Assembly: GCF_032854445.1 (NCBI RefSeq)
Contig: NC_088305.1
Location: 29,908,628-29,972,627 of the forward strand
Reading direction: 5' to 3'
Length of the DNA: 64,000 nucleotides
From: Liolophura sinensis
Lineage: Eukaryota > Mollusca > Polyplacophora > Chitonida > Chitonidae
Part shown: in pieces, positions 5,709 to 61,059 of the stretch
Layout: each line of letters opens with the position of its first letter
Numbering within the stretch: the stretch's first letter is position 1
Notes under the pieces: model-generated
Database searches by the model: none
The model's input: only the letters and a program-made list of their open reading frames with translations
What the model was told of the DNA's origin: nothing
Position numbers and translations under genes: made by a program

Positions 5709-5904
5709 TGTAGTACTGTGACAAAATGTCACGATGTATTCACAAAACCAGTGGACGTTTAAGCAAACTTAAAGAATCCAATTTCACAAGGGGGCCTACA
5801 ACTTTTTTCTTCAGAAATCACGTCGTTTGTCTACCTACATGTAGCTTATTTACTTGTCATTGACTTCACTTATTTCGCTTGATAAATGCAAGATATTATA
5901 GATA

Positions 5905-7550: not shown

Positions 7551-7849
7551 AGCACTCTGGAGAGAATGTGATTTCCGACAAAAGCAAACAATACAAAAAA
7601 TATATGTTTTGTACCTGAACCTTTATTACCTCCTCAGTTTTACATACATATCACTGGGGTCAAGCGTCTGGCCTAGAAAAAATGATGATGATATGAAAGG
7701 TAGCTACTAATAACTGGTGTTTGTCAGTTATTAAATTTACAATAGACTAATATCATTTAGTTTTACTGCGCTTAACAGACTAAAATTTGGTGGTAGGGCA
7801 ATTTGATCCGAGAGGCGATTCGGGTGAGGATTCTTTGTTTGTTTGACTG

Positions 7850-15046: not shown

Positions 15047-18000
15047 CTGAAATAAAAACATAATGAAATAATTAAGGTAATTTACTTATAATAATAATAA
15101 TAATAATGATGTTCACATAAAAGGCTGTCATGCACCTATCATGGGAAGGTAATTTTTTCCAGAGCCAGGTGAAAACAAGAAGTTTTAACACACTATTCAA
15201 GGAAATTTCTAAAATGTTTGGGCCAAACTTCAGCATACCAAAACTACTTTTTGATGTTAATATTTTTATCTTTAGTTTTGTCTTTGCTCACCTTATTTTT
15301 GTAGCTTTCGTCTTTGATATCACTTAAGTTTGTTATCACATTATGAAAAGTTCCCCACACTCCCGTTTCCAGGCTACGGGCTCCCACCTGTGGAGAAAAG
15401 GAACAATGAGAATTAAAAAGTCAGCAATCACACATCACCCAGACTCATGCAAGGATATTCCCATCATCCTGTACAAAATTCACACAGAATATCCTGTAAC
15501 TATGCAAAATGTACCACACATGTATATGTCTAAAAAAAAAAGGCATCTCATCAATATCTTGGGCATTTTTGTCAGGAATGTACATGTAAAGTTTTGTGTA
15601 TATTTTATTGTGTCCTTTAAAATATCTTAGACCATCCTACCCGTAAGTCTGACATACAGCTGATGTTGCCCAACCGAGACTATCTTACCTGTTAGTCTGA
15701 CCTACAGTTGATGTTTCCCACCTGAGACTATCTTACCTGTAAGTCTGACATACAGCTGATGTCTACCTGAGACCATCTTACCTGTAAGTCTGACTTAGAG
15801 TTGATATTGCCCACCTGATACTGTCTTACCTGTAAGTGTGACCTATAGCTGATGTCTACCCGAGACCATCTTACCTGTAAGTCTGATCTACAGTTGATAT
15901 TGCCAACTTCAGCCAGTTCCTTCAGAGTGGGCCACAGGGAGTTAGCTATACGAGCTACAGTCAGGGGAACCTGGACAGCAGTTTGCAGACCCTGCTGCAT
16001 AGCCTGATCACGTCTGGAGATGATAAAAACACGGGGGCAATCAACAACAACAGTACAACCAGCAGAGCTTCATTTATGTCTGTACACACCTCTACCTTGT
16101 CAATCCTATCTCTTGCTCTCACTTGTAATAGAGGGGTATGCATGTGTGGTTAGTCCAAAGGGCCATAACCCTGAGTGTGGGAAGCTGGCCAGTAGAGGGC
16201 TCAGGGGAAGAGAGGAGCATGGGAGAGGGAGAGGATGACCAGCAGTTTTTATGTGTGTATGGTGGTGGCCACATGTGTTTTGTAGTGTCTTGTAAAGGAA
16301 GTCTTTTGTGGTGAATACAAGGATTACATGTACCCGTACTGGATGTGTTGTTGACTTTTTTCATGGTAGCAGAGCGAAACACAACACTCACCATGAAATG
16401 ACAGCGATACGCTGACATCCAAACCCACCCAAGAACACAATTCACAAGAATAATCCAATCCTGTTCATTCAGTTTTCTATATTTTACATACGATTCACAC
16501 TGGTAGACTGACTCTAACAACATCATGTTACAAATGGACATCACTCTCTTGCTGTAAGTTTGTATCTCGAAACCTGCGTACTGGAGGTCCGAGCTGCTTT
16601 CAGACAGGGGGTCATCAGGTACAATGTACATGTCAATAGTGTACTCCATGCACTTCCAACCCCCATAAGACAGATCAATGTCATATTAACTAAACAATAC
16701 TTTAATGCAGTCTTGCGCACTAAAAAAAATAACTGGTAGGTGGAAGGTCTGTCAGCAACCTGTGGATGGTTGTGGGTTTCCCCAGGGTTCTGTCCGGTTT
16801 CCTCCCAACATAATGCTGGCCATCGTCGTATAAATGAAATATTCTTGAGTACGGCGTAAAACACTGATCAAAAAAATAAATAAATAAATAAATAAATAAA
16901 TAGCTGAGAATACTCACACTTCTCTTTCTGCTTCTGTTTTCTGGGGCATTTTAAGAGCAAGCTACGGAAAAAAATAACCATGTATCAGTGGAGAATATGC
17001 TGGGAAATGTCGTTACTGCACTGACCTTGAATCTTCTAAAGCAAAAACTCACATTCAAGTCACTTATCAGTACTTTATTACACTTTTTGTAGATTTTATT
17101 TATTGGTGAGAACAGGATTTGAACTCTAATCTCTAGACACTAATTCAGGGCCCTGTTCCTCTATGCCAAGTACTAAATGTAATGATGCTAGCGTTACACT
17201 TACTACTGATGACATTAGTTAAATGACAATGTTTGACAGCTTTCAAATCACAGAAGCTTTGACAATTACCATGTATGTCCTTACCATGTATTCACTAAAA
17301 GCAGCTGCATCTGCGTCTATAAATGGCGTCAAATCCTTCATGGCTTTGTACAGAGGAGGTATCAATCCACGCATCTTCGTGTCCAGACTCGCAAACTTCT
17401 TGTTTCCATATGTCAGGAACCCAACCATACTGCCCAGTGCTGCCCCCTGGTAAAGGAAACACCACATGGGGCATAACTCCATGATCAGATGAAGTTGTTT
17501 CTTGTTCACAGGAAATGCTACTCATGTATTTAATTAATCACAAATTATTTCTGACACTATGACATAAAAATAAAATCTAGTAGACATTACATTTTCACTT
17601 CACCTAACACAACTTATGTGATATATGAGGTGCAAAATATCTCTGAAAATAAAAATCTAAAAATAAGTGAATTAAAGCAATTTAAAGGGATACAGAATCG
17701 ACACAATTAAACCCTGCAGCCTTGGTCACACTTGAATAAATCTGCCATACCTAGAATTCAGCTTAGGCGAGGCATAGCCTGGACTTGCCTATCTCTCAAG
17801 CCAGCCAACCAGAATTGATTCTGTATCCCCTTAAGTCAGACTTTTCAATTGGCAGATGATGATTTCTCAATTTTTAACTTTTCTTTACCTTAAAATCCAT
17901 AGCTTATCTGTTAGAAATCAGATATAAAGTGATAATCTTAATGACAAGATAACCTTAAATTAACCTCTGCTAGCATGTTAATAAAGCGGGGCCAAATAAC

Positions 18001-39700: not shown

Positions 39701-42700
39701 CCACAGGTCATAGATTTTTTGCCCTTGATAGGGTTATAGGAGCTGTTGTAACAATGAAAACGTTATGTAGTTGTTGTCTTCTCTACGTCAGTGCGAGTAC
39801 ATTTTTTTCAGTACATATTTTAATTGAAGAGTTCCAGTACTTGTCCAGAACTGGGTTGCTGATAGGTTGTAGAAGTTTGGCTCACAGGAGAGATTAAAGA
39901 TGTTCTTTGAGAAACCGATGTAGTGAAAAAAGTTAGCCTGTCCAAAATACCCTTTGCCGTGGTAAAGTCAAAATTGAGGAACGGTCCCCTGGGCTTAAAT
40001 CTTATTCCTGGTCTCATCTCACAAAGCTAATGTTATAACCAGGCTTACATCTATGTCCTAATTAAGATCAATTTGCGCTATTTGATTTTTGTTTGTTTGT
40101 TTTCTCAGACTGCTTCAGAAATTTTGGAAGGTTTACTGGACGAAAATGATGAGGAGACAGAAGTTTGGTATCTGCTGGGTTGGTTGAACTACCTGCAGGG
40201 GGAAGAATATAGGGGTAACGCAAGGTACTACCTGAGGAAGGCAGCACAGGTAAATATAGAGGAGGGGGCAGAAGTGTGGTACTTACTGGGCTGACTGAAC
40301 TACCAACATGGGGAGGAATATAGGGATAGCACTTGGTACTACCTGATGAAGGCAGCACAGGTAAATATAGAGGAGGGGGCAGAAGTGTGGTACTTACTGG
40401 GCTGACTGAACTACCAACATGGGGAGAAATATAGGGATAGCACTAGGTACTACCTGAGGAAGGCAGCACAGGTAAATATAGAGGAGGGGGCAGAAGTGTG
40501 GTACTTACTGGGCTGACTGAACTACCAACATGGGGAGGAATATAGGGATAGCACTAGGTACTACCTGAGGAAGGCAGCACAGGTAAATATAGAGGAGGGG
40601 ACAGAAGTGTGGTACTTACTGGGCTGACTGAACTACCAACATGGGGAGGAATATAGGGATAGCACTAGGTACTACCTGAGGAAGGCAGCACAGGTAAATA
40701 TAGAGGAGGGGGCAGAAGTGTGGTACTTACTGGGCTGACTGAACTACCAACATGGGGAGGAATACCTGAGGAAGGCAGCACAGGTAAATATAGAGGAGGG
40801 GGCAGAAGTGTGGTACTTACTGGGCTGACTGAACTACCAACATGGGGAGGAATATAGGGATAGCACTAGGTACTACCTGAGGAAGGCAGCACAGGTAAAT
40901 ATAGAGGAGGGGGCAGAAGTGTGGTACTTACTGGACTGACTGAACTACCAACATGGGGAGGAATATAGGAATAGCACTAGGTTCTACCTGAGGAAGGCAG
41001 CACAGGTAAATATAGAGGAGGGGGCAGAAGTGTGGTACTTACTGGGCTGACTGAACTACCAACATGGGGAGGAATATAGGGATAGCACTAGGTACTACCT
41101 GAGGAAGGCAGCACGGGTAAATATAGAGGAGGGGGTAGAAGTGTGGTACTTACTGGGCTGACTGAACTACCAACATGGGGAGGAATATAGGGATAGCACT
41201 AGGTACTACCTGAGGAAGGCAGCACGGGTAAATATAGAGGAGGGGGTAGAAGTGTGGTACTTACTGGGCTGACTGAACTACCAACATGGGGAGGAATACC
41301 TGAGGAAGGCAGCACAGGTAAATATAGAGGAGGGGACAGAAGTGTGATACGTACTGGCCTGACTGAACTACCTGCATGGGGGTGGGGAAGGAGATATAAG
41401 GGTAAGGAGGAAATATAGGTCACATTTCATTCTTTTCTCATTTCAGAAATCATAGTTCTTGAAGTTCGTACATAATTGACAATTATAGAAAAATATTTAA
41501 AAAACATCTGGACTGGCCATTGCTAAATGTGTTAAAATCAAAAGACCTTAATGTAGAAATTTTTATGGTTTCCTTAGAAATAGTCAATTTTTTTTTGTCC
41601 AAGTGGTAGCTATAAATGGTAAAACTGATGCTAATTAGATTTGCTACTGCTGTTGAGAGCTGTGGTAATTTGCCTTTTCCCTCCTATAGACAAGCCACAT
41701 GTACATTCGTGTGCATTCATTCATTCATTTGTGACGACAATGGGTCAACACAGCAATTATATTGTATTGTTATATTAATATTCAACATCCAAATGTTTCT
41801 TTTCTCAAGAACACGCCATTTTGCACATATGTGCAGTTCAGATGAGGAATGAAACTGCAATAAGTTACCTGTGGAAATGAAAGCAAATTGGGTGAATGTC
41901 TTGTGTTCCAGGTGTACAAGAAGACAAAATGTGAAGACAAACCATTGTTGAAGCACACAGAGGAGCTGCTGGTAGAATTAGGACCTGGTGAGTCTGGAAC
42001 ACAATGCGTTTGGAAGAAAGAACTGGAGTGTAGATATATCTCACAATGGGTTTACTTAAAAGTTAGCTCTAGATAGCTCTCTACCTTCACTAACAATACG
42101 GGGGTAGAGCTGTAGAACGTTCTGTTTGATTCTTCTGCAAGAGTGCTTCGAAGATCATTGCCACATGTTACAACGCAACCTGTCATGATGGCCGTGGTGA
42201 GTGTAAACAATGTCACCTCCAGTGTGTGGAGAGTGGTGAGTGTAAACAATGTCACCTCCAGTGTGTGGAGAGTGGTGAGTGTAAACAATGTCACCTCCAG
42301 TGTGTGGAGAGTTCCACTGAAGCTGCCTGAATGTAGTTCATTGTTAACCTACAAGTTCTGCAGTAGTTCACTAAAACAGATAAGAACTAATAGCCAAAAA
42401 AAGCTGGTCCACCTGTGAAGTCAATTATTCAGTTCTGCAAAGTTTTAAACGTGGCCAAAGGCTCTGGAAGTCACTAGTTTTTGTTGACATACAGAACACG
42501 GCTGTCATTACAGGCTGGTTTAATTTTAACATGAGGCAATGATCTTTGAGGCTGGCAGTCTTTTAAGAACTGAAGGTAAGAGAACCGATTTGTAGCGTGT
42601 TGGCATGTACTTTTAAAGGAGCCATGAGGAAAATGCCTGAGGTGAGAGTTGATAGAACTCCGGCAGTACTGCAAGAGAATAAAATAGACCGTTCTGTATC

Positions 42701-46732: not shown

Positions 46733-46833
46733 ATGACAATGGAAAGCTGGCACTGGGCAGCCCTGGGGGTGTTGCTGTTCCTTACCACGTTCGGTTTCCT
46801 AGGGGCAACCTATGTCATCCTTACACTGGCTGG
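46733..46833 (+). CDS. SNX13: SNX13 coding exon 1 (residues 1-33)
   Basis: TTGTAG acceptor lies directly before ATG; reads MTMESWHWAALGVLLFLTTF and continues hydrophobic. Donor GTGAGT, phase 2. The second Met (residue 3) is an alternative start. Confidence 0.88.
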
Positions 46834-49800
46834 GTGAGTTTGAAGTATAAATGCTGTCGTTGCACACAGGATGTATTTTAGTGCTTAGCGCCTTGTTATT
46901 AAATGAGGGATCATCCCAGCTATTAGCTTCAGGTCCAGGCTGTGTAGTCTGTTGTTCATTCCTGTTAGCGTTTGTGGACTACTTTGCATGACACTTTGCT
47001 GGTCAAGCAAATTTTTTTATATTGTGCTTATGGGGAACTCGTAAAACTCCTTCCCACCTGTAATAAAAGGGTCCAAAGCTGTTAACTTGTCCTTGCTTCC
47101 TTTATTTCATCATTCTTATTGATGTATGTGTGCTAATAAAACACCTAGGAATACAACAGCACTGCATCATCACAAAGGAAAATGATGCGTTCTGCTGTGG
47201 TTTAGACCGTTTTAAGTAGCCTGTCTGTGAATCTCCCATTCTGTATGGTTATTCTCACTTAAGGGAAATCCTTGATGACTTAAATCAAAATTTCTTCTGC
47301 AGGCTTCCTACGAGAGAAATTTGATTATCAACTATATCTTGACTTTGTCCTTTTCCAAGGGAGTAAAAAAATATAAAAATTTCTTGTTTGCTGATTTCTT
47401 TCTATAGCCTAGTTTATAAATTCAAACCATGAATCTAGTCTACCATATGAATGTAAAACAAATGAAAGACCAGTTGTGAATTCTGATCCCACCTATTCAT
47501 TTTGTCAGCGGCTGTACCATAGCGTACCACTATGGTAAACAGAAGTCCCTACAGATACTGGCCACTCGCTACACCCGGCTCGAGGGTCCTCACCCGGGCA
47601 TCGACAAGGTACGTCCCTTAGACGAAAGTGACTTCTAGGATTTTATGCTGTGAAATTTTGTTTCAAAAGTCCAAGAATCTCTTGTTATTAGGAAATATTT
47701 GCATCTCTGTGAAAATGCCGTATGTCCCTGTAAGTTTCTAGGGTAACATCATATATTCAGGAAAATTTGGTAAAAGTAGACCTAGTTCTAAAGATATAAT
47801 TGTCGGAAATTTGTTCATTTTATTTGAGAAGTATTCATGATTATCATTTTGAATTGTTTGGTTTTACTTTAGTAGTCTGAGTGGCTTCTGTGACAATTAA
47901 TTTTGTGCAAATTTTAATTTTTTTTTTTCTGAAAACTTTTAAAAGATTATTTTGTATACTTTTCTGGAAGGAAATAAAATTAAAACAGAAACAAATTTAC
48001 TGAATAAACTTTCATTATGTGGCCTTGCCTTCATCAAGTGTACAAAGTCAACTCTACATGTGGATAAAAGAAAATAAAATCCTCCCAAAAATTAATTGAA
48101 TTAATAACTGAATGATTATGGCTTTACACCAAACGAATTGAATAGCTATTTTTAAAATAAATTATTGCGATCTTTATCTGACTTTTTCTAGCTCATGGAT
48201 TGAATTAACTGTTGTGAAAAATGTGTTCCAGGAAATTACAGACATGTGCACCTCCATGTTGTTTTGTATTCCTTGTAGATCTCAGAAAAACTTGAGAAGT
48301 CCACAAAGAGTAAGAATTTTGATAGAAGAATGACAGGAGCAGCCACCATGGATGCTATTCTTCAAGAGGTCAGTCCTGTATCTGATTGAATAATGATTAG
48401 AATGGCTGAGACTAAAGACAAAGAGGAGAAAGTTTTTAGAAGCTACATGACAGAGAAACTGTGTGTTGCTCGCTCTTGTACCATACATGTACACATGTCA
48501 GGGGATTGGGTTATGTCATGCAGCGGGGGGCCTCTGTGGGTGAAGTGGCTAGCACACCAGTGCTGCACAGTGACCCAGGCTTAGACTGCTTCTTATCCAG
48601 GCGTATGTGGGAGGTCTGACAGCAGCCTCAGGATGGTTGTGGGTTTTGCCTGGTTTCCTCTCACCATAATGGACGCTGTCGTATAAGTGGAATATTCTTA
48701 GTACCGCGTAAAACACCAGTCAAGTAAATAAATAAAATATATCATGCAGCTGAGCCTGAGTTTTATAGTGACACTGAAATTTATAGATTCAGCTTGGTTT
48801 TGAAATGACTAGATTCTTTAAGGGTGAAGCAGAAAAAGGGTCGAAAAAAATAGGTAATTGAATACCGGAATATTATAGCGACTCATTTACTTAGTCAGGT
48901 GTTTACAGGCAAATCCTTTTCTGTGTACTGACAGGTACTGGAGTATGCAATAAGGGATTACATCAAAACCTGGTACAGGCAAGTGTCTGAACATGACGGT
49001 TTCCTGGTGGAGATCCAGCAATGTGTACAGCAGGTTGTCATCATGTTTGCTCACAGGTAAATGACAGATTGTCATCGTTTTTGCTTAAAGGTAAACAACG
49101 TATTGTTGTCATGTTTGTTCAAAGGTGAACAGTGTGTATAACAGTGTGTATAGCAGATTGTCATCATGTTTGCTCTCGGGTAAACAGTTTTAAGCTGATT
49201 GTCATCATGTTTGCTCACAGGTAAACACTTTACATCAGATTGTCAGAATGTTTGTTCACAGGTAAACAACAGATTGTCATCAGGTTTGCTTATAGGTAAA
49301 CAACTGATTGTCATCATGTTTGCTCTCAGGTAAACACTGTACATTAGATTGTCATGTTTGCTCACAGGTAAACAACAGATTGTCATCAGGTTTGCTTACA
49401 GGTAAACAACTGATTGTCATCATGTTTGCTCACAGGTAAACACTGTGTTTAGCAGATTGTCATCATGATTTCAACATGCACAGCTTTTTAATGTATGTGT
49501 ATGTCTTCTTGCTTCAGGACGAAGTCTATTGATTGGCTGCCTTACTTCACCAATCGCATGGTAGACGACTTCGCCTCTCACATTCGGCTTTACCGGAGAG
49601 CATTGGATCTGTCACGCATTTCAAAAGATGGTAAACAAATATTCATACTGTTTGGTTTGAGTTGACTGGATGTATGTGTGTTGTTCAAGTAGACCATGAC
49701 CATCGAAAGGTGGTGAATAAAATATGAAATATACTCATATTGTTTGGTTGGAGTTGACTGCAGGTAACTGTTGTCTGAGTTGACTGCAGGTAAATGTTGT

Positions 49801-52800
49801 TTGAGTTGACTGCAGGTAAATGTTATTTGAGTTGACTGCAGGTAAATGTTATTTGAGTTGACTGCAGGTAAATGTTGTTCGAGTAGACTGCAGGTAAATG
49901 TTGCCATACACATTTTTTTGTGTAACTATGACCTAAAGTGTTTTCCAAAAAAGTGAGTTTTTAAAGGCAAATGGATGTCATAAAGTATTACTTTTGGTGC
50001 TGTAACTTCCATTTTCCCAACAGGATGCCATACTATCTTCAAACAAACCCGAAAACACCTTTCTATGATCAGTAGAACTCTCACAATCATAAATAAATAA
50101 TGTTGAATATAACATAACACATCAAGTTCAAATATAAAACTCGCTTCACAAGCACTGTAACTGAAATATCATTGACTATTGTATCAACCATAATGGTTGT
50201 ATTAAAAAATATGTATAAAATAGAGATGTAATTAACAGAAATAAAAAATACCCCAAAAATGAGAAGTAAAAAAAATAAATTTTTTCCACAATTTTGTTTA
50301 TTTGGCTTAGAGACATAATAAAGGGTTCCTTTTCGTTTATCCTGAATAGGAGCTGGACCTTGACCAAAATAGGTACAGCGCCATCTGGAAATAAAGGGAG
50401 ATAACTTAGTAATGTAGCCCATAATTGTGCATTCTTTCCCATTACAGAGGAGAAAGATGAGGAGAGTTTTTTCTTTGATCTGGAGCTGGAAATGGAGAAC
50501 AGTGTGTGCCGAGATTTGATCAGTACAAGTGCTGAAGATGAACGACGTAAGTATGAGCTTTTGTACCAAGGACATGATTTTTCTTGAAAGTGAGCGTGAA
50601 AGTGCTCAGTAATCAACAGGCAGATCAAAAAGACTTATTTAAGTGTTAAATGTAGCATTCATTTAGTACAAGGTAGTTTGGTTGTTGCATTCTGTGGCCT
50701 AATGGTTAGAGCGTCTGCCTTAAAGTCGGAAAACCTGAGATCAATCACATACATACATACATACATATATCTTTGTTACATTGGCAGTGGTGCAACAAGG
50801 AATACCACATTCATAAGAAATAGGGACTGGCTGGCTCAGTCAAAAGAAATAGGGACTCATGTTGGCTCGGTCTGAAAAAATATGCAGCCTTACTGGGACA
50901 GTCAAAAGAAATATGCACTCTTGGTTGCTCAGTTAAAACCTTGCTGGCTGATCAGAAGAAATATGCCGCCTTTGTTAGTCAGTCAGTAGGCATTTTATGT
51001 TCAGGAGCGGTTCTACCATCCGTACTCAAGAATATTTCACTGACACAACAGTGGCAGGGAAAGCATACAGAGTGGAGGGGCAGAGCCATATCTTGGGTCA
51101 TCTCCATTCTGGAAAACATTTGGGCTCCCAAACTGTCAGCTTCACAAACGAAACAAGCTGTACCAACACTAACACGGGAATTGAACAAAAATATGATGGT
51201 TTACTGATGACAAATTAAATTTTCATACAAATATCTTTCAGTTGCAGACTTTCAGGCTCTCAGAAGGCATCATTTTGAGTTGCGTTTTGAAATTTCTTTA
51301 TGCACAGTCACTATGTCACCATCAAGTTTGGGATCAGAGCCTTTAATGTTTTTCTAAATATATCCTTGGGGGGAACCCACAACCATCTGCAAGTTGCTGC
51401 CAGACCTTCCCATGTGGGACTGGACAGAAAGCCAGCATAAGTTCACAGCAATCGCATTGACGAGAGGCTCGTTGGCCATTGTTCTATGTTAACCACTCAG
51501 GCACAGAGGCCCACAATGCTAGCCGTAAGATGATCACATAAAAATGGTTTGCATAAATGAATAACTCATAAATGAATAAGATGTACATGTAACTTTTCTG
51601 GTCTAATGTTACAGAATATCTGCAGGATCTGAGTGAGGTGTTGTTGTTTTTACTGCTACCACAATCGGACTTCCAGAACAAACCATTCCGGTATATAGTC
51701 AGGGTGCGTTTCCATGAATATCTTCAATTCTCATGTGTCTGTTTTCTGCAGTAGAAACTTTAAAAAAAAAATTAAAGCTTTTTAAAAAACTAAAGACAAA
51801 GCTTTAATAACATAAATGACATGTATTTAATTCTTTCTGAATGAGCAGGTAATATTTAATCGCCTGTTATGCATAGTAATCCAAAGGAAGAAAACTGTAC
51901 AGTACCGAGTGGCAACATCCTGTCATAGTAGGGCTCATGCAGCTATCATATTGCACTAGTGGAATCATGGAATTTCAAGTTCAAACTCTTTTGTCGCTTT
52001 TTATAAAAAAAAGTTTCAGAAAAAATGATTTAGACTAGACGAACGATGAAGAAAATTGAGGAACTGAACATTTGTGAACATCAGAAGTTCCTAAGGTAAA
52101 GTTTCGCAGGGAAACAGGTGATCATTAAGTTAAGGTTGCCAAGACAAATATTGCCCTACAGTTTTCACAAATCACATGATATGGTTTGAACTGGAAACTC
52201 CCCTATTGCATTTTCTTTAAAGAACCTCCCTGCATGTAACACGGCCCTAGAACACAAAGATACACTTGTAAATAATTGTTCTCCTCTTTTTCTTTTCCTC
52301 ATTCTCGCCCTGTTCGCCACAGGAAGTGTTGGTCAATGGTATATTTATCCCAACTATTGACTTAGCCTCAGACCCAGATTACATCAATCAGACAATCGCC
52401 TGGTGGGTAAGTACATGTGCACCGAACTCTGTCAGGGGAGATAACTCCTGAGTGTAACACTCTTGTAAGATTTTTTATACCCTTATGTACTTATATGTTG
52501 CTACACAATTTCTGTTTACAGTTACCCTTTTGTGGCAACTGGAAACCATTTTGTAGTGTTTTGACACAAGTTGCTGTATTATACCAAAGGTTTGGTATGC
52601 AAGACAGCATTTTCAGAAGCACATTAAAGCCTTAAAATGATTCTTTTGATGCCAACACACATTTTTCTATCAAAATTTAATCAAACACAAAAAGTTTTAA
52701 GTGGCCTTATAAGGTGATGAATCAGCCAAGATCAAGCAGACTGTGTCACTTAAATAATGTTAAACTTAAGGCGAAATGCTTTAAATGAATTCATGCAGCA

Positions 52801-55800
52801 CAGCTTCTACCAAGAATGCCAAGTTTTCATAGTTGTTTGTTTGCTTTCAATTTGTTATTCTCTGACATCCATAAAATTTTGAATTTCTATCAAAGAAATG
52901 GTTTGTTTTAGTTTATAAAGATAGATCGGGATGTTTTCAGAAGTAAAATTGAATAAAGATTCTTCCAGTAGTCACAATGTGATCAATTTCTGTGACCGTG
53001 AAAGATTGATTATGGCTTAACACCAGAATGGGCAGTATTGCAGCTATATCGTGGCTTTCTGTTTCTGTATCTGTGTATGTACATATATCCCAAAACTTCT
53101 GTAAGACTGAAATTTTCAGAAGATATACACAGATAATGATAATGTGTTTGATATATATATTTCAATATCTGTGAATTGTTTTTCTCTGTTTCGTAATAGA
53201 TTTTCTAAAAGAACTGTGTAATTTTCTTTTCTTACAGTGTAAAGAGACAAGTTTCAGTAATGAAACATTCATGAGTGTGCTGAAAACGACGGAGAATATT
53301 GAGGAATTAACGGCTGTTAAAGAGAAGGTGCAGCGAGATATTTTCAAGTGGCGGTCCAAAGACTCTGGTGGCGATGATGGTTAGGTTTAGTTCGCTTCTT
53401 CAGAGTGACACAGAAATTCTCAGAGAACGACCTTAAAAATTGCATCAAATTAACAAAAGTGATAGAATAAACAGTTTTGGTAGTTGTTTTTTTTGTGTGT
53501 GTTTTCTCATCACATTTTCTGGCTGGTTTTGAAAATTATGGTTAATTGGTGGAGAATTGAACTAATATTTTTTTAATTTGCATAGCTAAGTTTTAAAGTA
53601 CACGTAATCTTTATTAAAGAAAAAGATTGGTTAAAAATCAGGAGAAGGCTAATTGAATACTGTCTCTAAAAATTTGTTTATTTACTGTTATTTTTTTTTT
53701 AATTGAACAGAGTAAGGTTTGTGAATTAAATGATGTCAAATTTCTAAATAAAAATTTGGCATTTATGAACCATGCTGCCAGTATCAGTATCATACTATGA
53801 TGTTACATAACTCTGTTTTTGTTATATTCAGCTACTGGAGAATTTTTTGATTACAGTATTAAAGTAATAAGGGTTTAATTTAATAAAGATGGGTAATAAG
53901 AACTACTCCAATGCAGAAAATTGAGCTTAAAGTGGGAAGAAAGCTCTTGTGAGCCTCAGAGTACTGTACCTAAATGCTGGCTATATGGTTCATACAGCCA
54001 CCATAGAATTCAAATAGCTAAAAATAAAAAAAAAAATAATTGAAAGCATCTTTATGCTCAGTTTTCAGTTGTCTGTTGGCTGAGCCTTAATTCATTTTTA
54101 GTTTTACATTTTAAAGCACCTTGGCTGAAGAAAAGCATACGCTGTTTTCCTTCTCAGATACTGTGATAAAGCAGAACCTGAGTAGTTTACTGTTTGTGAA
54201 GGATGTGTGTGAGAAAAGGACAAAGAGGCTTCAAGAGGGTCCAGATGATGCTGACAATGATGTGAGTTATCTCCCCTGGCTTTCCCCTGATATTAATGAT
54301 GCTTTATCATCTATCTGTATTAGTGTTGTGTATCAAGTAACTTGGAGTGCCCAGGTTAAATCAGTGGCTCTTGGCAAGCTACTTATGAGCTTTATTCACA
54401 GGTGACAGTCAGAATTGATCTTGTGCGAATGTTACATTGTGCACATGACCACGTATTGTAACCAAAGCCACTGTGAACATTGGGAAAGGGGGAATCTACA
54501 GATCCTTTACCCAAGGGCTGTGTTGACCCCTGGACCCCGTAGAGAAGCAGATAACATTAGTGTTACTAATGTATGCTGTCATTTGATCTGCCTGTCTCCT
54601 TGTAGCAGCTGTGTTTCTGCTATATTGTAGGAATAATATTGAGTGAGTGAGTGAGTGAGTGATTGGGGTTTTAAGTTGTAGGAATGGTATAGCACGGATG
54701 TGTTATGTGTGGCGAAATTAAAGGTTCTTATTTGATTTGAGAAACTAGAGAAAAGTTTTGTATTTTCTTCAGAATTGTGAACTGTAAATAAAGCACCTTT
54801 TGTCTGAATTACAGGATCCTGAGTTTTGCCGAGTCATGTCAGCAGGATCCCACCTCTTTATCATGTCTCTTGATGATGTCATCAACAACAACATAGCCTT
54901 ACAGTATTTTATTGGTAAGAGTTACCGAGGCAATCTGATGGAATTTTGAAGGCTGTCTTCCAGAATTGGTTCCAGAAGTTCCAGAACTTTTCCACCAGCA
55001 TTCACAGATTCAAATTGATGTACATTTACTTATATTTTCTAGCTCATTTTCTCAAAAGTAACTGAGCAAGATCCAGGTACATGTAATTATGGGAAAGTTT
55101 TCATTCCAAAAAACAAAAAAAAAAACAACAAAAAAAATTAAGTGAAAGTTTTTTATATTTTTTTTCAAATTCTTTAAACTCAGTGGTGTAGCTTTAACTA
55201 AAGTTTGTTTACAGTAATTGTTAATACAATGTACTTTTTTTTTTTAAAATTTGGATCCTTGTTTGTAATTTCTTATCTCTTTCATTTTTGTCAGTTACGT
55301 TTGACCTTTATTTGCAGAATTTTTAAGCAGCAGGGGTGGACAGCAGTATTTATTCTTTTATTTAAATGTTGAGGTAAGGCTTACTAAATAAAGTAACGTT
55401 GAAGATTAATTTCACAGTCCATTTGGTTTAGCTACAAATATGACAGAATCCCTAGACTTTTTTTTACTTACGTCATCCTCGGAGCATCAACAGCCAATAT
55501 CACTTGCATATAACTTACTTAGGTAAGTAAAGTTTAGCATAAAATCTTTCCAGGTAAATGTATATATATACTGAAAATCTAGTACTATTATTGGCTGAAT
55601 CAGTTGCATGTCAGAAGTATGTGTATCATAAAAATGTTAAAACAGACAGTTATACCAAATTCATTTCCGTAAGAATCATGGACGTGTAAAATTGAAAAAA
55701 ATAACCCATGGTTCACATTCAAAATTTTTTAAATCCTTTTTTTTTTAATCCAGTTGATAGAAAAGATACACAACAATCTAAGATCATAAAACATTACATT

Positions 55801-58800
55801 TGGTGCTGAAATTGTCTTATTGAAAGATTTCTGAGGTTTGTTTGGAATGCAGAGTGATATTCATCAAAAGTAATACTTGACATTTTATTTGCCTTGATGA
55901 AGTTTAGGTCATTTACATGTTACATGTTATTTATTATCTTACATGTTTCCAGGGTTACAGAACAGCAGCCGAGCAGCAGATAGTGATAGCTCAGGAGGAG
56001 AAGAAGAAAGACGCTCAGGCACTAAAGCCAGACTTGGAGTCTCTGAGACGTTTGGCGTCCATTATATATGACCAGTACCTTTCTGACAAGGTATTTATTT
56101 ATTTATTTATTTGGCTGGTGTTTCATGCCAGATTCAAGAATATCTCTCTGTTTTTACAATGGCAGCCAGAAGTATGGTGACAAGAAACTTGGCAAAGATT
56201 GAAGGAAACAAACAACCATTTTAGAGGCCAAAAAATGTCCAAAAAATATTCCTTTTCAGATCTTAAATGATTTTAGATCATTTACGGATTGCAAAATTGT
56301 GTTAAGAATTTCCCCAAAATGGTTTTCCCTTTGCATTTTTCTTTCCTCCACCCATAAACCTGACTGCTTTTATATAAGTGAAAAATGTTTAAATGCTGCA
56401 ATAATACACCAATCAAAGAAATAAATTAATACAGAAATTTGTCACTAAATTCCCCGTGATTCTTGATAGTTATTGGCTGATTAGACTTTGATTTATTTAT
56501 TTGATTGGTGTTTTACGCCATACTCAAGAATATTTCACTTATACGACGGCGGCGTGAAAACCGGGCAGAGCCCGGGGGAAACCCACGACCATCCGCAGGT
56601 TGCTGGCAGACCTTCCCCACTTACGGCCGGAGAGGAAGCCAGCATGAGCTGGACTTGAACTCACAGCGACTGCATTGGTGAGAGGCTCCTAAGTCATTAC
56701 GCTGCGCTAGCGCGCTAACCGACTGAGCCACGGAGGCCTCGGCTGATTAGACAAGTCCAAATACCAACATACAGATATCAATGTATGTGAGGATTTTAAC
56801 CCTGGGTTTGACATTATAATCCTGAATCGCAGGTGTTCCCAACAAGGGGACAACTAATACTACACAGTACATATTGTACAGATGTACACTGTATGTGCTT
56901 CATAAATGTTTCATCACAGTTTTTGGTTGACAGACATCGCTCTCTCTCTCTTTTTCCCATGAAGGCAACAGAAAGAATCCGAGTGGATGATCCGGCAGTT
57001 AGAAGAACTCATCAACAAATCAAAAACAAGATGTTGTCAGAAGATGTATTTGATGAGGTCCAGTCTAGGGTAAGTAGATGATATGTTTGAACTGAACATC
57101 TGGGGCCTGGATGATACAACCGGTTTTGGCTTTTGTCTTGGCCTTGTAATTACTGACTGATTATGGCTGAACAAAACACCGTGGAGAAAAAACTATCAAT
57201 ACCCAGTAAAAATTAAAATGATTCAGGTACAGCTACAATTTGAAAGAGATGAAAACTTATTAAAACTTATTAAAAGTCACAACTGCTGGCCATTTAATTT
57301 TCGAACTGACCCCTAGGACCTTGGGGAAAGTGTAGTTTTTGATGCATTTTTACTGCTAAGAAACAATTCTGAGCATTTTTTTTTATATATTAGGACACAT
57401 TCTTAACTGCATCTTAAGAAACTAAAACCATATATTTGATATATCCTTTGACCTATTGTTATGAAAGAATGAAGGAATGGCTTTTGATGTTGTAGGTGTA
57501 CCAGAAGAGATAGCTTTGCAATTTGATGTTGTAAGTGTACCAGAAGAGATAGCCTTGCAGTTTGATGTTGTAGGTGTATCAGAAGAGATAGCTTTGCAAT
57601 TTGATGTTGTAGGTGTACCAGAAGAGATAGCCTTGCAGTTTGATGTTGTAGGTGTACCAGAAGAGATAGCCTTGCAGTTTGATGTTGTAGGTGTACCAGA
57701 AGAGATAGCTTTGCAATTTGATGTTGTAAGTGTACCAGAAGAGATAGCCTTGCAGTTTGATGTTGTAGGTGTATCAGAAGAGATAGCTTTGCAATTTGAT
57801 GTTGTAGGTGTACCAGAAGAGATAGTCTTGCAATTTGATGTTGTAGGTGTACCAGAAGAGATAGCTTTGCAATTTGATGTTGTAGGTGTACCAGAAGAGA
57901 TAGCTTTGCCGTTTCCTGTTGTAGGTGAACCAAAAGAGACAGCATTGCAATTTGATGTTGTAGGTGTACCAGAAGAGATAGCTTTGCAATTTGATGTTGT
58001 AAGTGTACCAGAAGAGATAGCTTTGCAATTTGATGTTGTAGGTGTACCAGAACAGGTAGCTTTGCCGTTTCCTGTTGTAGGTGAACCAGAAGAGACAACA
58101 TTGCAATTTGATGTTGTAGGTGTACCAGAAGAGATAGCTTTGCAATTTGATGTTGTAGGTGTACCAGAAGAGATAGCTTTGCAGTTTGATGTTGTAAGTG
58201 TACCAGAAGAGGTAGCTTTGCAATTTGATGTTGTAGGTGTACCAGAAGAGGTAGCCTTGCAGTTTGATGTTGTAGGTGTACCAGAAGAGATAGCTTTGCA
58301 GTTTGATGTTGTAAGTGTACCAGAAGAGGTAGCTTTGCAATTTGATGTTTTAGGTGTACCAGAAGAGATAGCTTTGCAATTTGATGTTGTAAGTGTACCA
58401 GAAGCGGTAGCTTTGCAATTTGATGTTTTAGGTGTACCAGATTTTACATGGAGAGAAGTATTATGAAGCCTTCCTGCAGAGCAGTCAGTACATCAAGCTT
58501 CTGTACGACCTCAACCTTCTTCCCACAGACGGGAATAGGGACGAGGAAGAGGATAGAGATGACGTCAGCCTCAGTGATGGTAAGTCTACAGCATTTGATT
58601 GGTCAGTTGTTGATAACTAAGGGGTCTGTAGGGTTACACCTCGTCTGTCAGCTATTGATAACTAAGGGGTCTGTAGGGTTACACTTCATCTGTCAGCTAT
58701 TGATAACTAAGGGGTCTGTAGGATTACACCTCGTCTGTCAGCTATTGATCCCTAAGGGGTCTGTAGGGTTACACCTCGTCTGTCAGCTTTGGATAACTAA

Positions 58801-61059
58801 GGGGTCTGTAGGGTTACACTTCGCCTGAGAGCCGTTAATAACTAAGGGTTCTGTAGGGTTACACTTCGTCTGCCAGCTGTTGATAACTAAGGGGTCTGTA
58901 GGGTTACACCTCGTCTGTCAGCTATTGATACCTAAGGGGTCTGTAGGGTTACACCTCATCTGCCTGCTCTTGATAACTAAGGGGTCTGTAGGGTTACACT
59001 TCATCTGTCAGCTATTGATAACTAAGGGGTCTGTAGGATTACATGTCGTCTATCAGCTATTAATACCTAAGGGGTCTGTAGGGTTACACCTCGTCTGTCA
59101 GCTGCTGATACCTAAGGGGTCTGTAGCGTTACACCTCATCTGTCAGTTCATTAATATGTCACAGAACAGTTTTTCAGACTTTTTTTCAGCATGGATCGTA
59201 ATGAATTGAAACATGTTACATGGCTTCAGCATGAAAAAAGGTTACAGATCATGTTCAAGGCCTGGGCCGTTTTAGCTAATGGCAACAAATTTATGGTTTT
59301 TTCCTACTTCTGGACATTAAAGGTTTTCCAGTCCTATTTATGAAAATGGTTCAATGGATTAAGACCTTTGCATAGCTTCAATATGACAAGATAAAGATCA
59401 AATTTATGCCATTTTAGCCAGTGTAAACAAAATTATGGTAATATTTGTGGTCATGTTTTGGTCTTTCACACATTTTCCAACTTATTTAAATGGTTGGTTT
59501 TGGTGAATTGATACCGTCTTATTGCGTGGCATCACTTTAACAAGTTGCAAATCAAGTTCAAGTGCTGATCTGTTTTGTGCATTTTTCAACACAATTCTGA
59601 CCGATTTTGTACCTGAAGCTATTGTTCTGATGACTCAAAGGGGTAGGGAATGTATTGGTTTTTGCAGGACTCTCAGAATGCTTGTTTACATTTTTTTTTT
59701 TGTTAAAAAAAGACTTCAGCCAGGGACAAATTTAATCTTAACTCCTGAGTGGTATGTATGAACAAATACTCACTGAAAGGCAATCTATTAAAAGTACATT
59801 AAAGTACATGAAGTTGTTGAATATGAGCATTTTTAGATCAGCATTTGGATGTTGGATTTAAAGAGTGTGAAACAGTGATATATCAGACTGTTGAAGTTTG
59901 TGTTAAACCTATGAAGATTGCTGTGTGATCGTGAGGCTGGTGGACTGATACAGGTCAGGCTAAGTGAAAAGAGAGCCTCTGGAAACCATTGATGTGTCAG
60001 TGATGTGCACATAGTTTTGAAACTCTTGACAGATTGCTCAATTGATCAACGTATGAGATGAATACAAATCAAATGGTAGTGGAATGCTAGAAGCCTGCTA
60101 AAAGCCTGCTAAAAGCCTGCTACAAGCGCACTAGTAAGTCACAAGACACTAAGGACCTGTCTCTTGGTTGGTTCATGAACAGTGAACTGTTTAAGTGTTC
60201 CTTACACACTGGATCAGAAGACATCTTAGCAGAAAGGCTTTAAGTGTTCCTTACACCCTGGATCAGAAGACATCTTAGCAGAAAGGCTTTAAGTGTTCCT
60301 TACACACTGGATCAGAAGACATCTTAGCAGAAAGGCTTTAAGTGTTCCTTACACACTGGATCAGAAGACATCTTAGCAGAAAGGCTTTAAGCGTTCCTTA
60401 CACACTGGATCAGAAGACATCTTAGCAGAAAGGCTTTAAGTGTTCCTTACACACTGGATCAGAAGACATCTTAGCAGAAAGGCTTTAAGTGTTCCTTACA
60501 CACTGGATCAGAAGACATCTTAGCAGAAAGGCTTTATGTGTTCCTTACACACTGGATCAGAAGACATCTTAGCAGAAAGGCTTTAAGTGTTCCTTACACA
60601 CTGGATCAGAAGACATCTTAGCAGAAAGGCTTTAAGTGTTCCTTACACACTGGATCAGAAGACATCTTAGCAGAAAGGCTTTACATATTGTCTGCAAATG
60701 TGTCTTGGCTACAGTGGCCACGATATGGGTGAAATATTTGTTTATGTGGCGTTAAGCCATAATCATTCATTCATTCATTCATTCATTCTTGGCAACAGTT
60801 CTTTGTTTATTTAGTGGGAACAGTGATGTAGCTACACTGCAGTCTCTTCTTGTACTAAACCAAAATGTGCCGGTGAAAGTGAAACTTGTCAGAATATTCC
60901 TTTGTGAGACATTTTCCTGTACGTTATTCTTTTAAAGACGAGTTCAAATTCAGCATTTGGTGAAAATTAGAATAAATACCAGAAAATATTCTACTGATAC
61001 ATTGCATTTTCCTGATGTTTTCAGTTACAGATCTGCAGGTTTTGGCCACTAAAAAGAAA
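46733..61059 (+). CDS. SNX13: SNX13-type sorting nexin (PXA and RGS part), 16 coding exons, 3' end outside window
   Basis: Joined exons give 542 codons in one frame. The N-terminus (residues 6-40) is strongly hydrophobic, a membrane anchor. A PXA domain follows (about 95-285: VLEYAIRDYIKTWYRQVSEH, IDWLPYFTNRMVDDFASHIR, LLLPQSDFQNKPFRYIVR, SDPDYINQTIAWW), then NLSSLLFVKDVCEKR. An RGS domain follows (about 349-495: DDVINNNIALQYFI, GGQQYLFFYLNVEGYR, IIYDQYLSDKA, RIRVDDPAV, DEVQSRVYQIL). Order and spacing match SNX13, an ER, lipid-droplet and endosome tether whose RGS acts on G-alpha-s. SNX14 and SNX25 share the layout but match less well in the blocks I can compare from memory. The PX and nexin-C domains must lie to the right. 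An acceptor directly before the ATG implies an upstream 5' UTR exon. Confidence 0.93.
47509..47608 (+). CDS. SNX13: SNX13 coding exon 2 (residues 34-67)
   Basis: Completes Gly, then GCTIAYHYGKQKSLQIL and YTRLEGPHPGIDK, the link from the membrane anchor to the PXA domain. Donor GTACGT, phase 0. Confidence 0.88.
48279..48368 (+). CDS. SNX13: SNX13 coding exon 3 (residues 68-97)
   Basis: Reads ISEKLEKSTKSKNFDRRMTG then AATMDAILQE; the RRLTGAN-like motif just before the PXA domain is conserved in SNX13. Donor GTCAGT. Confidence 0.92.
48529..48738 (+). mobile_element. SINE-A, diverged full-length copy
   Basis: GGGGCCTCTGTGGGTGAAGT head, CAGTGACCCAGG, GTTTCCTCTCACCATAATGG and ACCAGTCAAGTAAATAAATA. 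Confidence 0.85.
48935..49056 (+). CDS. SNX13: SNX13 coding exon 4 (residues 98-137)
   Basis: Start of PXA: VLEYAIRDYIKTWYRQVSEH; ends QQVVIMFAHR in phase 2 at GTAAAT. The exon end and donor are repeated in the following array. Confidence 0.94.
49057..49465 (+). repeat. Exon-derived array: 10 copies of SNX13 exon 4 end with donor
   Basis: ATTGTCATCATGTTTGCTCA then CAG and GTAAAC repeats the exon's last bases plus donor. Decoy donors begin at 49091, 49125, 49180, 49221, 49262, 49296, 49330, 49368, 49402 and 49436; the usual spacing is 34, with 38, 41 and 55 variants, so frame is not kept. Confidence 0.94.
49518..49630 (+). CDS. SNX13: SNX13 coding exon 5 (residues 138-175)
   Basis: PXA core, IDWLPYFTNRMVDDFASHIR; donor GTAAAC, phase 1. 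Confidence 0.94.
49650..49905 (+). repeat. 26-nt minisatellite with donor-like CAG-GTAAAT, SNX13 intron 5
   Basis: Unit GAGTTGACTGCAGGTAAATG plus TTGTTT, about 6 clean copies after two diverged ones near 49655 and 49745. It begins about 25 bases beyond the exon 5 donor and seems to come from intron sequence. Confidence 0.9.
50448..50546 (+). CDS. SNX13: SNX13 coding exon 6 (residues 176-208)
   Basis: Reads EEKDEESFFFDLELEMENSV then CRDLISTSAEDER; phase 1 in and out, donor GTAAGT. Confidence 0.93.
50688..50748 (+). mobile_element. tRNA-derived element
   Basis: GTGGCCTAATGGTTAGAGCG (A-box-like), then CTTAAAGTCGGAAAACC and GAGATCAATC. Looks like a tRNA gene head, but lacks good acceptor pairing and is followed by ACATACATAC repeats. 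Confidence 0.55.
51010..51055 (-). mobile_element. SINE-A small fragment
   Basis: Reversed CCGTACTCAAGAATATTTCA followed by CTGACACAACAGTGGC. Confidence 0.65.
51365..51515 (-). mobile_element. SINE-A head half
   Basis: Reversed GGGGGGAACCCACAACCATC, GTTGCTGCCAGACCTTCCCA and the head ACTCAGGCACAGAGGCCC. Confidence 0.82.
51615..51703 (+). CDS. SNX13: SNX13 coding exon 7 (residues 209-238)
   Basis: Reads QYLQDLSEVLLFLLLPQSDF then QNKPFRYIVR, a PXA signature. Donor GTGCGT, phase 0. Confidence 0.94.
52323..52406 (+). CDS. SNX13: SNX13 coding exon 8 (residues 239-266)
   Basis: Reads EVLVNGIFIPTIDLASDPDY then INQTIAWW, the end of the PXA core. Donor GTAAGT, phase 0. Confidence 0.94.
52590..52785 (+). 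repeat. Dispersed repeat D1, copy 2 (SNX13 intron 8)
   Basis: Same order of blocks as 24230-24440 (TTTCAGAAGCA, CTTTTGATGC, AATCAAAC, GATGAATCAGCC). Element type unknown. Confidence 0.65.
53238..53379 (+). CDS. SNX13: SNX13 coding exon 9 (residues 267-313)
   Basis: Reads CKETSFSNETFMSVLKTTEN and ends SKDSGGDD. Donor GTTAGG is weak, but phase and homology continue exactly into the next exon. Confidence 0.9.
54158..54261 (+). CDS. SNX13: SNX13 coding exon 10 (residues 314-348)
   Basis: Reads DTVIKQNLSSLLFVKDVCEK then RTKRLQEGPDDADND, matching the NSLLFVKKVC segment of SNX13 before RGS. Donor GTGAGT. Confidence 0.93.
54637..54690 (+). mobile_element. SINE-B fragment
   Basis: Repeated GAGTGAGTGAGTG followed by ATTGGGGTTTTAAGTTGTAGG. 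Confidence 0.55.
54815..54914 (+). CDS. SNX13: SNX13 coding exon 11 (residues 349-381)
   Basis: Reads DPEFCRVMSAGSHLF and SLDDVINNNIALQYFI; start of the RGS fold. Donor GTAAGA, phase 1. Confidence 0.92.
55318..55373 (+). CDS. SNX13: SNX13 coding exon 12 (residues 382-400)
   Basis: A 56-nt exon, EFLSSRGGQQYLFFYLNVE, matching the RGS helix with GGQAHLFFW-like sequence. Donor GTAAGG, phase 0. Confidence 0.92.
55953..56090 (+). CDS. SNX13: SNX13 coding exon 13 (residues 401-446)
   Basis: Reads GYRTAAEQQIVIAQEEKKK and LASIIYDQYLSDK. The donor GTATTT is the first base run of a minus-oriented SINE tail. Confidence 0.93.
56091..56218 (-). mobile_element. SINE-A starting at the SNX13 exon 13 donor
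   Basis: GTATTTATTTATTTATTTGG is both donor and reversed SINE tail, followed by TTTCATGCCAGATTCAAGAA and GCCAGAAGTATGGTGAC. Confidence 0.82.
56338..56434 (+). mobile_element. SINE-A 3' fragment, diverged
   Basis: TTTCCTCCACCCATAAACC, TATAAGTGAAAAATG and ACACCAATCAAAGAAATAAA, opposite in orientation to its neighbours. Confidence 0.65.
56490..56745 (-). mobile_element. SINE-A, full length
   Basis: Reversed TTTATTTATTTGATTGGTGT, GAGCCCGGGGGAAACCCACG, GAACTCACAGCGACTGCATT and head CTAACCGACTGAGCCACGG. Confidence 0.93.
56965..57069 (+). CDS. SNX13: SNX13 coding exon 14 (residues 447-481)
   Basis: Reads ATERIRVDDPAVRRTHQQIK and ends EDVFDEVQSR; end of the RGS domain. Donor GTAAGT, phase 0. Confidence 0.93.
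57484..58431 (+). repeat. Exon-derived array: 24 decoy acceptors of SNX13 exon 15
   Basis: A 39-nt unit (GATGTTGTAGGTGTACCAGA plus AGAGATAGCTTTGCAATTT) repeats 24 times and runs without a break into the true acceptor and first bases of exon 15 (GTTTTAG, GTGTACCAGA). The unit therefore contains the acceptor and the first 10 exon bases. Any decoy used in the correct phase meets a stop, usually after VYQKR. A 329-codon ORF in another frame is a by-product of the 39-nt period. Confidence 0.95.
58432..58579 (+). CDS. SNX13: SNX13 coding exon 15 (residues 482-530)
   Basis: Reads VYQILHGEKYYEAFLQSSQY then IKLLYDLNLLP and an acidic end; matches the last RGS helices. Its acceptor GTTTTAG is the last of 25 near-identical junctions. 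Donor GTAAGT, phase 1. Confidence 0.92.
58600..59150 (+). repeat. 45-nt minisatellite, 12 copies, just after SNX13 exon 15
   Basis: TAACTAAGGGGTCTGTAGGG recurs every 45 bases from about 58617 to 59114. It starts about 20 bases past the exon 15 donor and shows no exon sequence. Confidence 0.95.
59151..60189 (+). other. SNX13 intron 15 unique part
   Basis: Only short ORFs and no known repeat between the 45-nt and 49-nt arrays. Confidence 0.5.
60190..60685 (+). repeat. 49-nt minisatellite, 10 copies
   Basis: Unit TTTAAGTGTTCCTTACACAC then TGGATCAGAAGACATCTTAG and CAGAAAGGC; copies are almost identical, suggesting recent expansion. Confidence 0.96.
60690..60790 (+). mobile_element. SINE tail of a third type (GTGGCGTTAAGCC, CATTCATTC)
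   Basis: TATGGGTGAAATATTTGTTT, GTGGCGTTAAGCCATAATC and then (ATTC)n, the ending of a second tRNA-type SINE family seen in molluscs (from memory). Confidence 0.5.
61025..61059 (+). CDS. SNX13: SNX13 coding exon 16, 35-nt microexon (residues 531-542)
   Basis: TGTTTTCAG acceptor, GTAAGT donor, and phases (1 in, 0 out) that fit exactly, encoding VTDLQVLATKKK. It falls in the variable linker before PX, so homology cannot confirm it. Confidence 0.6.

What the first reader, a model, noticed from the sequence alone, without database searches (positions are those of the whole stretch)
57484..58579. SNX13 exon 15 preceded by 24 decoy 3' splice sites, all ending in stops
The 39-nt unit contains TTGTAG and then GTGTACCAGA, identical to the start of exon 15. 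If a decoy is joined to exon 14 in phase 0, the reading is GTG TAC CAG AAG AGA TAG or a close variant; the two diverged copies stop at the next TTG TAG. The real site, at the far 3' end, is the only one that gives protein. Spliceosomes often choose the first AG after the branch point, so the true site must be favoured somehow, or part of the RNA is sent to nonsense-mediated decay.
Basis: partly seen in the sequence, partly recalled or inferred. Interest (0 to 1): 0.87.

Follow-up and report, generated by a model that had tools for sequence, protein, structure and literature searches.

The report
Chiton gene's repeated intron-end copies
In a chiton gene (SNX13) the last bases of one intron plus the first ten of the next exon have been copied 24 extra times in a row, so the cell must find the one splice site that yields protein among many lookalikes; such "mirage" repeats are already known from lancelets, and here five sit within about 52 kilobases of a mollusc genome.

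Summary
Window 57483-58441 is a 39-nt minisatellite, 24.6 copies. Its last copy runs 10 nt into exon 15 (58432-58579) of an SNX13 orthologue. The source is chiton assembly GCA_032854445.1, Liolophura sinensis, published as L. japonica.

Corrections: 18 of 24 decoys keep AG|GTG; 6 read TAAGTG, donor-like. All 123 other AGs in the array lead to a stop, 30 of them only inside exon 15. For in-frame decoys this is automatic: the intron is phase 0 and the real acceptor is TAG. By a recalled weight matrix the real acceptor (4.2) is the weakest of the window's 15 SNX13 exons; 17 of 18 AG|GTG decoys score higher.

This is a "mirage", a tandem repeat spanning an exon-intron boundary, named in amphioxus. 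Four more lie within 52 kb: SNX13 exons 4 and 17, FTCD, and a TPR gene. Junction overlap is not significantly above chance (5 of 18 arrays, 3.1 expected, P 0.18). Best reading: a neutral minisatellite tolerated because exon definition picks the exon-proximal site. No RNA evidence was available.

The parts
57483..58441 (+). 39-nt minisatellite, 24.6 copies: 24 intronic units plus a last partial unit with the real acceptor and the first 10 nt of exon 15
   Evidence: all 14 matches of a double unit in the 609-Mb assembly lie inside the array (that search skips very common words and counts are lower bounds)
58432..58579 (+). SNX13 exon 15 (real acceptor TTTTAG|GTGTACCAG, donor GATG|GTAAGT)
   Evidence: tblastn of P0001 and P0004 both start at 58432
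56965..57069 (+). SNX13 exon 14, ends in phase 0 at AGG|GTAAGT
57912..57950 (+). diverged unit 12 (TTTCCTGTTGTAG|GTGAAC), with unit 16 the best acceptor score in the array (8.8), donor-like 5.7
58068..58106 (+). diverged unit 16, as unit 12
58341..58379 (+). unit 23, the only decoy with TTTTAG as in the real site
57465..58466 (+). 333-codon open frame across the array (13-aa repeat FDVVGVPEEIALQ); no coding signal found
46733..57069 (+). SNX13 exons 1-14 (46733-46833, 47509-47608, 48279-48368, 48935-49056, 49518-49630, 50448-50546, 51615-51703, 52323-52406, 53238-53379, 54158-54261, 54815-54914, 55318-55373, 55953-56090, 56965-57069); start of exon 1 approximate
49031..49467 (+). second mirage in SNX13: 34-nt unit spanning the exon 4 donor (49056), CACAG|GTAAAT/C; 10 further donors scoring 5 or more, all after a stop
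40151..41381 (+). mirage at the donor (40249) of a TPR-protein exon 40109-40249, 111-nt unit; 10 copies of the donor plus one other donor scoring 5 or more, all after a stop
15629..15904 (-). mirage at the donor (15875) of FTCD exon 12, 45/48-nt units; three exact decoy donors at +45, +93, +138 are in frame and open
49747..49903 (+). 26-nt array in SNX13 intron 5, units with CAG|GTAAAT or near variants; does not touch an exon

Best explanation
It is a mirage-type minisatellite: a 39-nt segment spanning the intron 14/exon 15 boundary (29 nt intron, 10 nt exon) that expanded by unequal exchange or slippage in a minisatellite-rich chiton genome. Shown: the anatomy, the protein junction, the stops, the similar arrays at other junctions. 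Inferred: the array is neutral and tolerated because the spliceosome defines exon 15 from its strong donor at 58580 and takes the nearest upstream acceptor, giving a 148-nt exon, while decoys would give exons longer by 39n. Any leak to a decoy gives an early stop and, by the usual exon-junction rule, probably NMD.
For: Array spans the boundary. Junction VQSR|VYQIL without gap in 25 of 25 aligned homologues, and tblastn with SNX13 proteins places exons on both sides. The donor of exon 15 scores 9.8, third highest of 15 in the window. In the five boundary arrays the site taken as real from protein homology is the exon-proximal one: the last in the acceptor array, the first in the four donor arrays. 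Arrays are common everywhere: 41 in 20 sampled stretches of 10 kb, 9.6% of bases; 24 in the window, 17.3%. Their overlap with junctions is not significantly above placement by chance: 5 of 18 gene-body arrays, 3.1 expected, P(>=5) 0.18. No coding signal in any frame, lowest p 0.14. In amphioxus such arrays reportedly do not disturb regular splicing of Adh3 and globin genes (PMC3087553, passages).
Against: No RNA was seen: use of 58432 rests on protein homology only. The real acceptor is the weakest of the 15 exons in the window, and two decoys score 8.8, so leakage could be large. The purine-rich GAAGAG in most units could act as an enhancer for decoys (inference). The PWMs are recalled human-like frequencies, not trained on chitons. 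The null models assume uniform placement and, a 110-nt limit on exon overlap; both constrained nulls expect fewer boundary arrays than seen (2.4 against 4, 3.1 against 5), so a mild bias towards junctions is not excluded.
Confidence: 0.72

Rival explanations
1. Regulated unproductive splicing: the array is kept as a sink of decoy acceptors (or poison exons made from array acceptors and array donors) that sends a set share of SNX13 RNA to NMD, length setting the dose.
For: All 123 AGs before the real one lead to a stop. 101 of 101 possible 30-300 nt internal exons from array sites (32 acceptors >=4, 11 donors >=5) hold an in-frame stop. The real acceptor is weak. A C. elegans minisatellite is over-represented near alternative splicing regions (PMC4039745, abstract).
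Against: Stops follow automatically from a phase-0 intron ending in TAG and a 39-nt unit. Six of 24 units have lost the AG at the site. Similar arrays lie at unrelated genes. Five of 9 FTCD decoy donors are open and in frame, so stops are not a rule of the class.
Confidence: 0.12
2. Ladder of dual-specific (AG|GT) or recursive splice sites: a decoy used as acceptor recreates a donor at the junction (AGG|GTG...), so the extra piece is removed in a second step and the final mRNA is normal.
For: 18 of 24 decoys and the real site are AGGT. Units 12 and 16 combine the best acceptor (8.8) with a recreated donor of 5.5. AGGT tandem arrays in human UBC are spliced stochastically in unit steps (PMC10809524, abstract and section 7).
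Against: The recreated donor of the common unit is weak (AGG|GTGTAC, 2.5). The real junction carries the same donor. Units 12 and 16 lack the TTGAT motif. No RNA seen.
Confidence: 0.08
3. The array is coding: an open 333-codon frame (57465-58466), or a 13-residue repeat isoform through GAG|ATA or TTGCAG|TTT acceptors.
For: Frame open across all 25 units; 30 AGs read it. Pfam's DUF1648 reaches 63.9 bits (cut-off 28.7) on the whole repeat but with 0 stretches passing on their own.
Against: 3 of 17 distinct variants synonymous, 3.9 expected, p 0.81; two of the three minus frames are open across the array as well and the third is interrupted little, so openness says nothing. It ends out of frame in exon 15, and none of the 25 homologues aligned has an insert at the junction.
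Confidence: 0.03
4. The copy number is an assembly product; a short array was over-expanded.
For: Minisatellites are hard to assemble; the coverage was 14x HiFi, mean read 8,347 bp (PMC11068029, passages).
Against: The whole array (959 nt) fits in one HiFi read, and units carry distinct variants. Existence is not in doubt, exact number may vary by allele. No reads were seen.
Confidence: 0.05

Closest known systems
Amphioxus 'mirages' (Adh3, globin BflGb6/BflGb9, TnC, PGBD5)
   Different: A chiton, not a cephalochordate; 24 extra acceptor copies, against 6 and 3 repeat units in the two BflGb6 haplotypes; three in one gene. Length instability and regular splicing were reported there, untested here
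Tandem array of dual-specific splice sites in human UBC (PMC10809524; abstract and section 7)
   Same: AGGT once per unit in a tandem array; unit length a multiple of three (228 nt there, 39 here)
   Different: UBC units are coding ubiquitin monomers; here units are intronic with in-frame stops; use as both sites is shown there, not here
Intron gain by tandem duplication of an AGGT segment (PMC3443670, passages; PMC4974935, search listing only)
   Same: AGGT-bearing segment duplicated in tandem
   Different: Here an existing intron end is duplicated; no new intron is shown
Human internal tandem repeats at exon-intron boundaries (PMC2812944, passages)
   Same: Variable repeats at boundaries may activate cryptic sites
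   Different: Those were studied in recent human segmental duplicates; at least half change coding sequence
Intronic minisatellites in other lophotrochozoans (abalone TSSK1-like intron 3, 27-bp unit, PMC6905558; earthworm metallothionein intron, PMC12783039; passages)
   Same: Length-variable or repeat-rich introns with minisatellite units
   Different: In the passages seen the repeats are described as intronic, not as spanning a splice junction

Membership tests
Mirage minisatellite | Tandem repeat whose unit spans an exon-intron boundary | tested here: met
   29 nt intron + 10 nt exon per unit; boundary set by protein homology
Mirage minisatellite | Copies carry the splice signal of the boundary (many, not all, in the amphioxus cases) | tested here: met
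   18 of 24 decoys AG|GTG; 6 of 24 TAAGTG
Mirage minisatellite | Regular splicing not disturbed | not testable with these tools
Mirage minisatellite | Length instability between alleles or somatic | not testable with these tools
   one assembly only; units differ by 0-6 changes from consensus
Mirage minisatellite | Found in cephalochordates (where the name was coined; not a sequence feature) | tested here: not met
   chiton assembly
Dual-specific splice-site array | AGGT motif in each unit | tested here: inconclusive
   present in 18 of 24 decoys plus the real site, absent in 6: most units, not each
Dual-specific splice-site array | Sites used both as donor and acceptor | not testable with these tools
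   needs RNA-seq or lariat reads
Intron gain by tandem duplication | New intron lies between duplicated AGGT copies | tested here: inconclusive
   protein joins without a gap at one intron; intron position in other chitons not seen
Poison exon / unproductive splicing | Alternative splice forms with premature stops | tested here: inconclusive
   all forms examined have stops; use not testable

The most novel reading that the evidence does not exclude
Chiton genes tolerate long mirages because the copied AG|GT boundary is self-correcting: splicing to a copy recreates a donor at the junction, so re-splicing steps down the ladder to the last copy. SNX13 exon 15 would be a natural ladder of dual-specific sites, visible as 39-nt steps in nascent RNA, with units 12 and 16 as main stepping stones.
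Probability: 0.06. Interest if true: 0.8.

Novelty: new member of a known kind. Interest (0 to 1): 0.5.

Why it matters
In the papers found here mirages are reported from amphioxus. A mollusc with five boundary-spanning arrays within about 52 kb suggests that a minisatellite-rich genome makes them, without need for a splice-site-directed process. They are natural experiments on splice-site choice: 24 near-identical units before one exon, decoy donors equal in score to the real one at three other junctions (SNX13 exon 17, TPR, FTCD), and in FTCD decoys that would add 15, 31 or 46 codons in frame. RNA-seq of five tissues of this species has been deposited (PMC11068029), so the question can be tested directly.

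Tried and rejected
Amphioxus as source: first guess from the mirage literature.

Coding array: no excess of synonymous changes in any of six frames; rejected.

Arrays aimed at splice sites: free placement of 24 arrays covers 10.5 of 62 junctions on average (95% 4-19) against 4 seen, and 5.8 arrays touch a junction (2-9) against 4. With overlap limits, 2.4 of 23 arrays expected against 4, P 0.20. In gene bodies of the extended region, 3.1 against 5 of 18, P 0.18. So free placement expects more than seen and the limited versions expect fewer; neither is significant for an excess.

The 45-nt array 58602-59146 as a mirage of the exon 15 donor: pairwise alignment weak; not claimed.

AGGT in array units: listed with shuffles, not tested formally.

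A survey of mirages over the whole genome: not done. Protein search with exons 14-15 alone found nothing; that tool only admits proteins of 0.55-1.75 times the query length.

Papers: PMC3087553, PMC3902484, PMC2812944, PMC3443670, PMC11068029, PMC6905558, PMC12783039 seen as passages; PMC4039745 abstract and section list; PMC10809524 abstract and section 7; PMC12441733 whole text; PMC4974935 search listing only. Searches that could have shown earlier reports in molluscs or chitons: (lists capped in 13: 20 of 56, 41: 10 of 83, 59: 8 of 157). I saw no report of boundary-spanning repeats in molluscs among the listed titles, abstract starts and the passages opened; two listed mollusc papers, PMC3862624 and PMC5780484, were not opened. 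That is a statement about these lists only.

Full report
What is there. Window 57483-58441 is a tandem array of a 39-nt unit, consensus TTTGATGTTGTAGGTGTACCAGAAGAGATAGCTTTGCAA, 24.6 copies, 90% matches, no indels. Twenty-four units precede the one that holds the real acceptor; they are 33 to 39 of 39 identical to the consensus and show 17 distinct variants. The last unit runs into exon 15: TTTGATGTTTTAG|GTGTACCAGATTTT, exon start 58432. A search of the own assembly with a double unit gave 14 matches, all inside this array; that search skips very common words, so its count is a lower bound.

The gene. Twelve exons joined by phase give an open frame, and exons 13-15 continue it. The product matches sorting nexin-13 of molluscs and vertebrates (77 proteins at E <= 0.001, candidates limited by length and to 8000), the solved RGS domain of SNX13 7wf6 (E 3.3e-28) and Pfam PXA and RGS. 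In an alignment of 25 chosen of these 77 proteins there is no gap column at the exon 14/15 junction VQSR|VYQIL. The first residue after it is V in 23 of 25, and V-Y/F-Q follows in 12 of 25. With 30 kb fetched downstream, tblastn finds further SNX13 exons up to about 73.9 kb in extended coordinates (two of four queries printed).

The organism. The assembly has 609,464,459 bases in 632 contigs, contig C1 96,433,062 and C9 37,343,639 bases. The published chiton assembly GCA_032854445.1 has 632 scaffolds, longest 96,433,062, N50 37,343,639, total 609,495,693 (PMC11068029, passages). The species was corrected from Liolophura japonica to L. sinensis (PMC12441733). The small difference in total was not followed up.

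The decoys. Of 24 decoy units, 17 read TTGTAGGTG, 1 TTTTAGGTG, 6 TTGTAAGTG. The 18 with AG|GTG are in frame with exon 15 and stop at codon 6 or 13; the 6 others are out of frame and stop at codon 10. Counting every AG in the array, 123 precede the real one: 93 stop inside the array, 30 inside exon 15, none gives protein. The in-frame part of this is automatic. Intron 14 is phase 0 and ends in TAG, so the real acceptor itself is a stop for anything upstream read in frame. Only 2 of the 14 acceptors of exons 2-15 end in TAG.

Strength. With recalled human-like weight matrices the real acceptor scores 4.2. Sixteen AG|GTG decoys score 4.2-6.4 and the two diverged units 8.8, so 17 of 18 score above the real site and one equals it. 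At the other 14 exons of the window (exon 1 counted with its upstream AG) the scores are 5.7-10.0. So nothing in the acceptor core singles out 58432. The donor of exon 15 scores 9.8. The only yUnAy-like branch-point match inside the decoy units is TTGAT, in 22 of 24; for the real site it lies 8 and 47 nt upstream. These scores are a rough yardstick only.

Not alone. Four more arrays span a junction: SNX13 exon 4 donor (49031-49467, 34 nt), SNX13 exon 17 donor (66694-67776 in extended coordinates, 61 nt, 17.8 copies), the donor of a TPR-protein exon (40151-41381, 111 nt), and FTCD exon 12 donor on the minus strand (15629-15904, 45/48 nt). FTCD was confirmed by alignment over 513 residues to 1tt9, E 6.7e-213, with the exon 12/13 junction SDLQ|V free of insertion. 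Decoy donors scoring 5 or more: SNX13 exon 4, 10 of 10 after a stop; TPR, 11 of 11 after a stop; SNX13 exon 17, 31 of 32 after a stop (the stop flags for exon 17 used a wrong frame). In FTCD 5 of 9 are open, among them three exact copies of the real donor in frame. So stops are not a rule of such arrays. A further array, 72642-73018 in extended coordinates, carries CCCATTTCAG|C units and ends 21 nt before the real acceptor at 73040.

Chance or targeting. The window has 24 arrays on 17.3% of its bases. Twenty stretches of 10 kb of the same assembly, taken at fixed round positions, have 41 arrays on 9.6% of bases, that is 13 per 64 kb. Free random placement covers more junctions than seen (10.5 against 4 of 62). 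Placement that may not cover whole exons or more than 110 nt of one gives somewhat fewer boundary arrays than seen (2.4 against 4, P 0.20; 3.1 against 5 of 18, P 0.18). Neither shows a significant excess. Boundary arrays can thus be the by-product of a minisatellite-rich genome, filtered by selection for one working site next to the exon; a mild bias towards junctions is not excluded.

Reading. The structure meets the sequence definition of a mirage (PMC3087553). There, RT-PCR suggested that mirages do not disturb regular splicing, and length instability was seen. I infer the same here and that exon definition keeps the choice: in the five boundary arrays the site taken as real from protein homology is the exon-proximal one. 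The untested alternatives are a decoy sink with NMD, and a ladder of dual-specific AG|GT sites as in UBC (PMC10809524). The last is my most novel reading: weak in the common unit (recreated donor 2.5), more plausible at units 12 and 16 (5.5), which however lack the TTGAT motif.

Limits. No RNA, one haplotype, one species. Splice matrices are recalled. Exon borders of TPR and downstream SNX13 exons are approximate. A survey over the whole genome was not done.

Noticed in passing
window 15629-15904 (minus strand): FTCD exon 12 donor is repeated; three exact decoy donors score the same as the real one (10.9) and would add 15, 31 or 46 codons in frame without a stop.
   Followed up: partly
extended coordinates 66694-67776 (G000:C11:29975321-29976403, locus L029): SNX13 exon 17 donor repeated 17.8 times in a 61-nt unit, most copies keeping AAAG|GTGAGG (score 11.7).
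   Followed up: partly
window 40151-41381: 111-nt array at the donor of a TPR-protein exon, with 90-nt variants; its first unit takes in 99 nt of the coding exon.
   Followed up: partly
window 49747-49903: 26-nt array in SNX13 intron 5, units with CAG|GTAAAT or near variants, not attached to any exon: a bare array of dual-specific-like sites.
   Followed up: no
extended coordinates 72642-73018 (L029): 22/44-nt array with TTTCAG|C acceptors ending 21 nt before the acceptor of an SNX13 exon at 73040.
   Followed up: partly
window 58602-59146: 45-nt array starting at base 23 of intron 15, so exon 15 is flanked by arrays on both sides.
   Followed up: partly
window 5902-7551: 55-nt array of 30 copies outside the three genes modelled here; nature unknown.
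   Followed up: no
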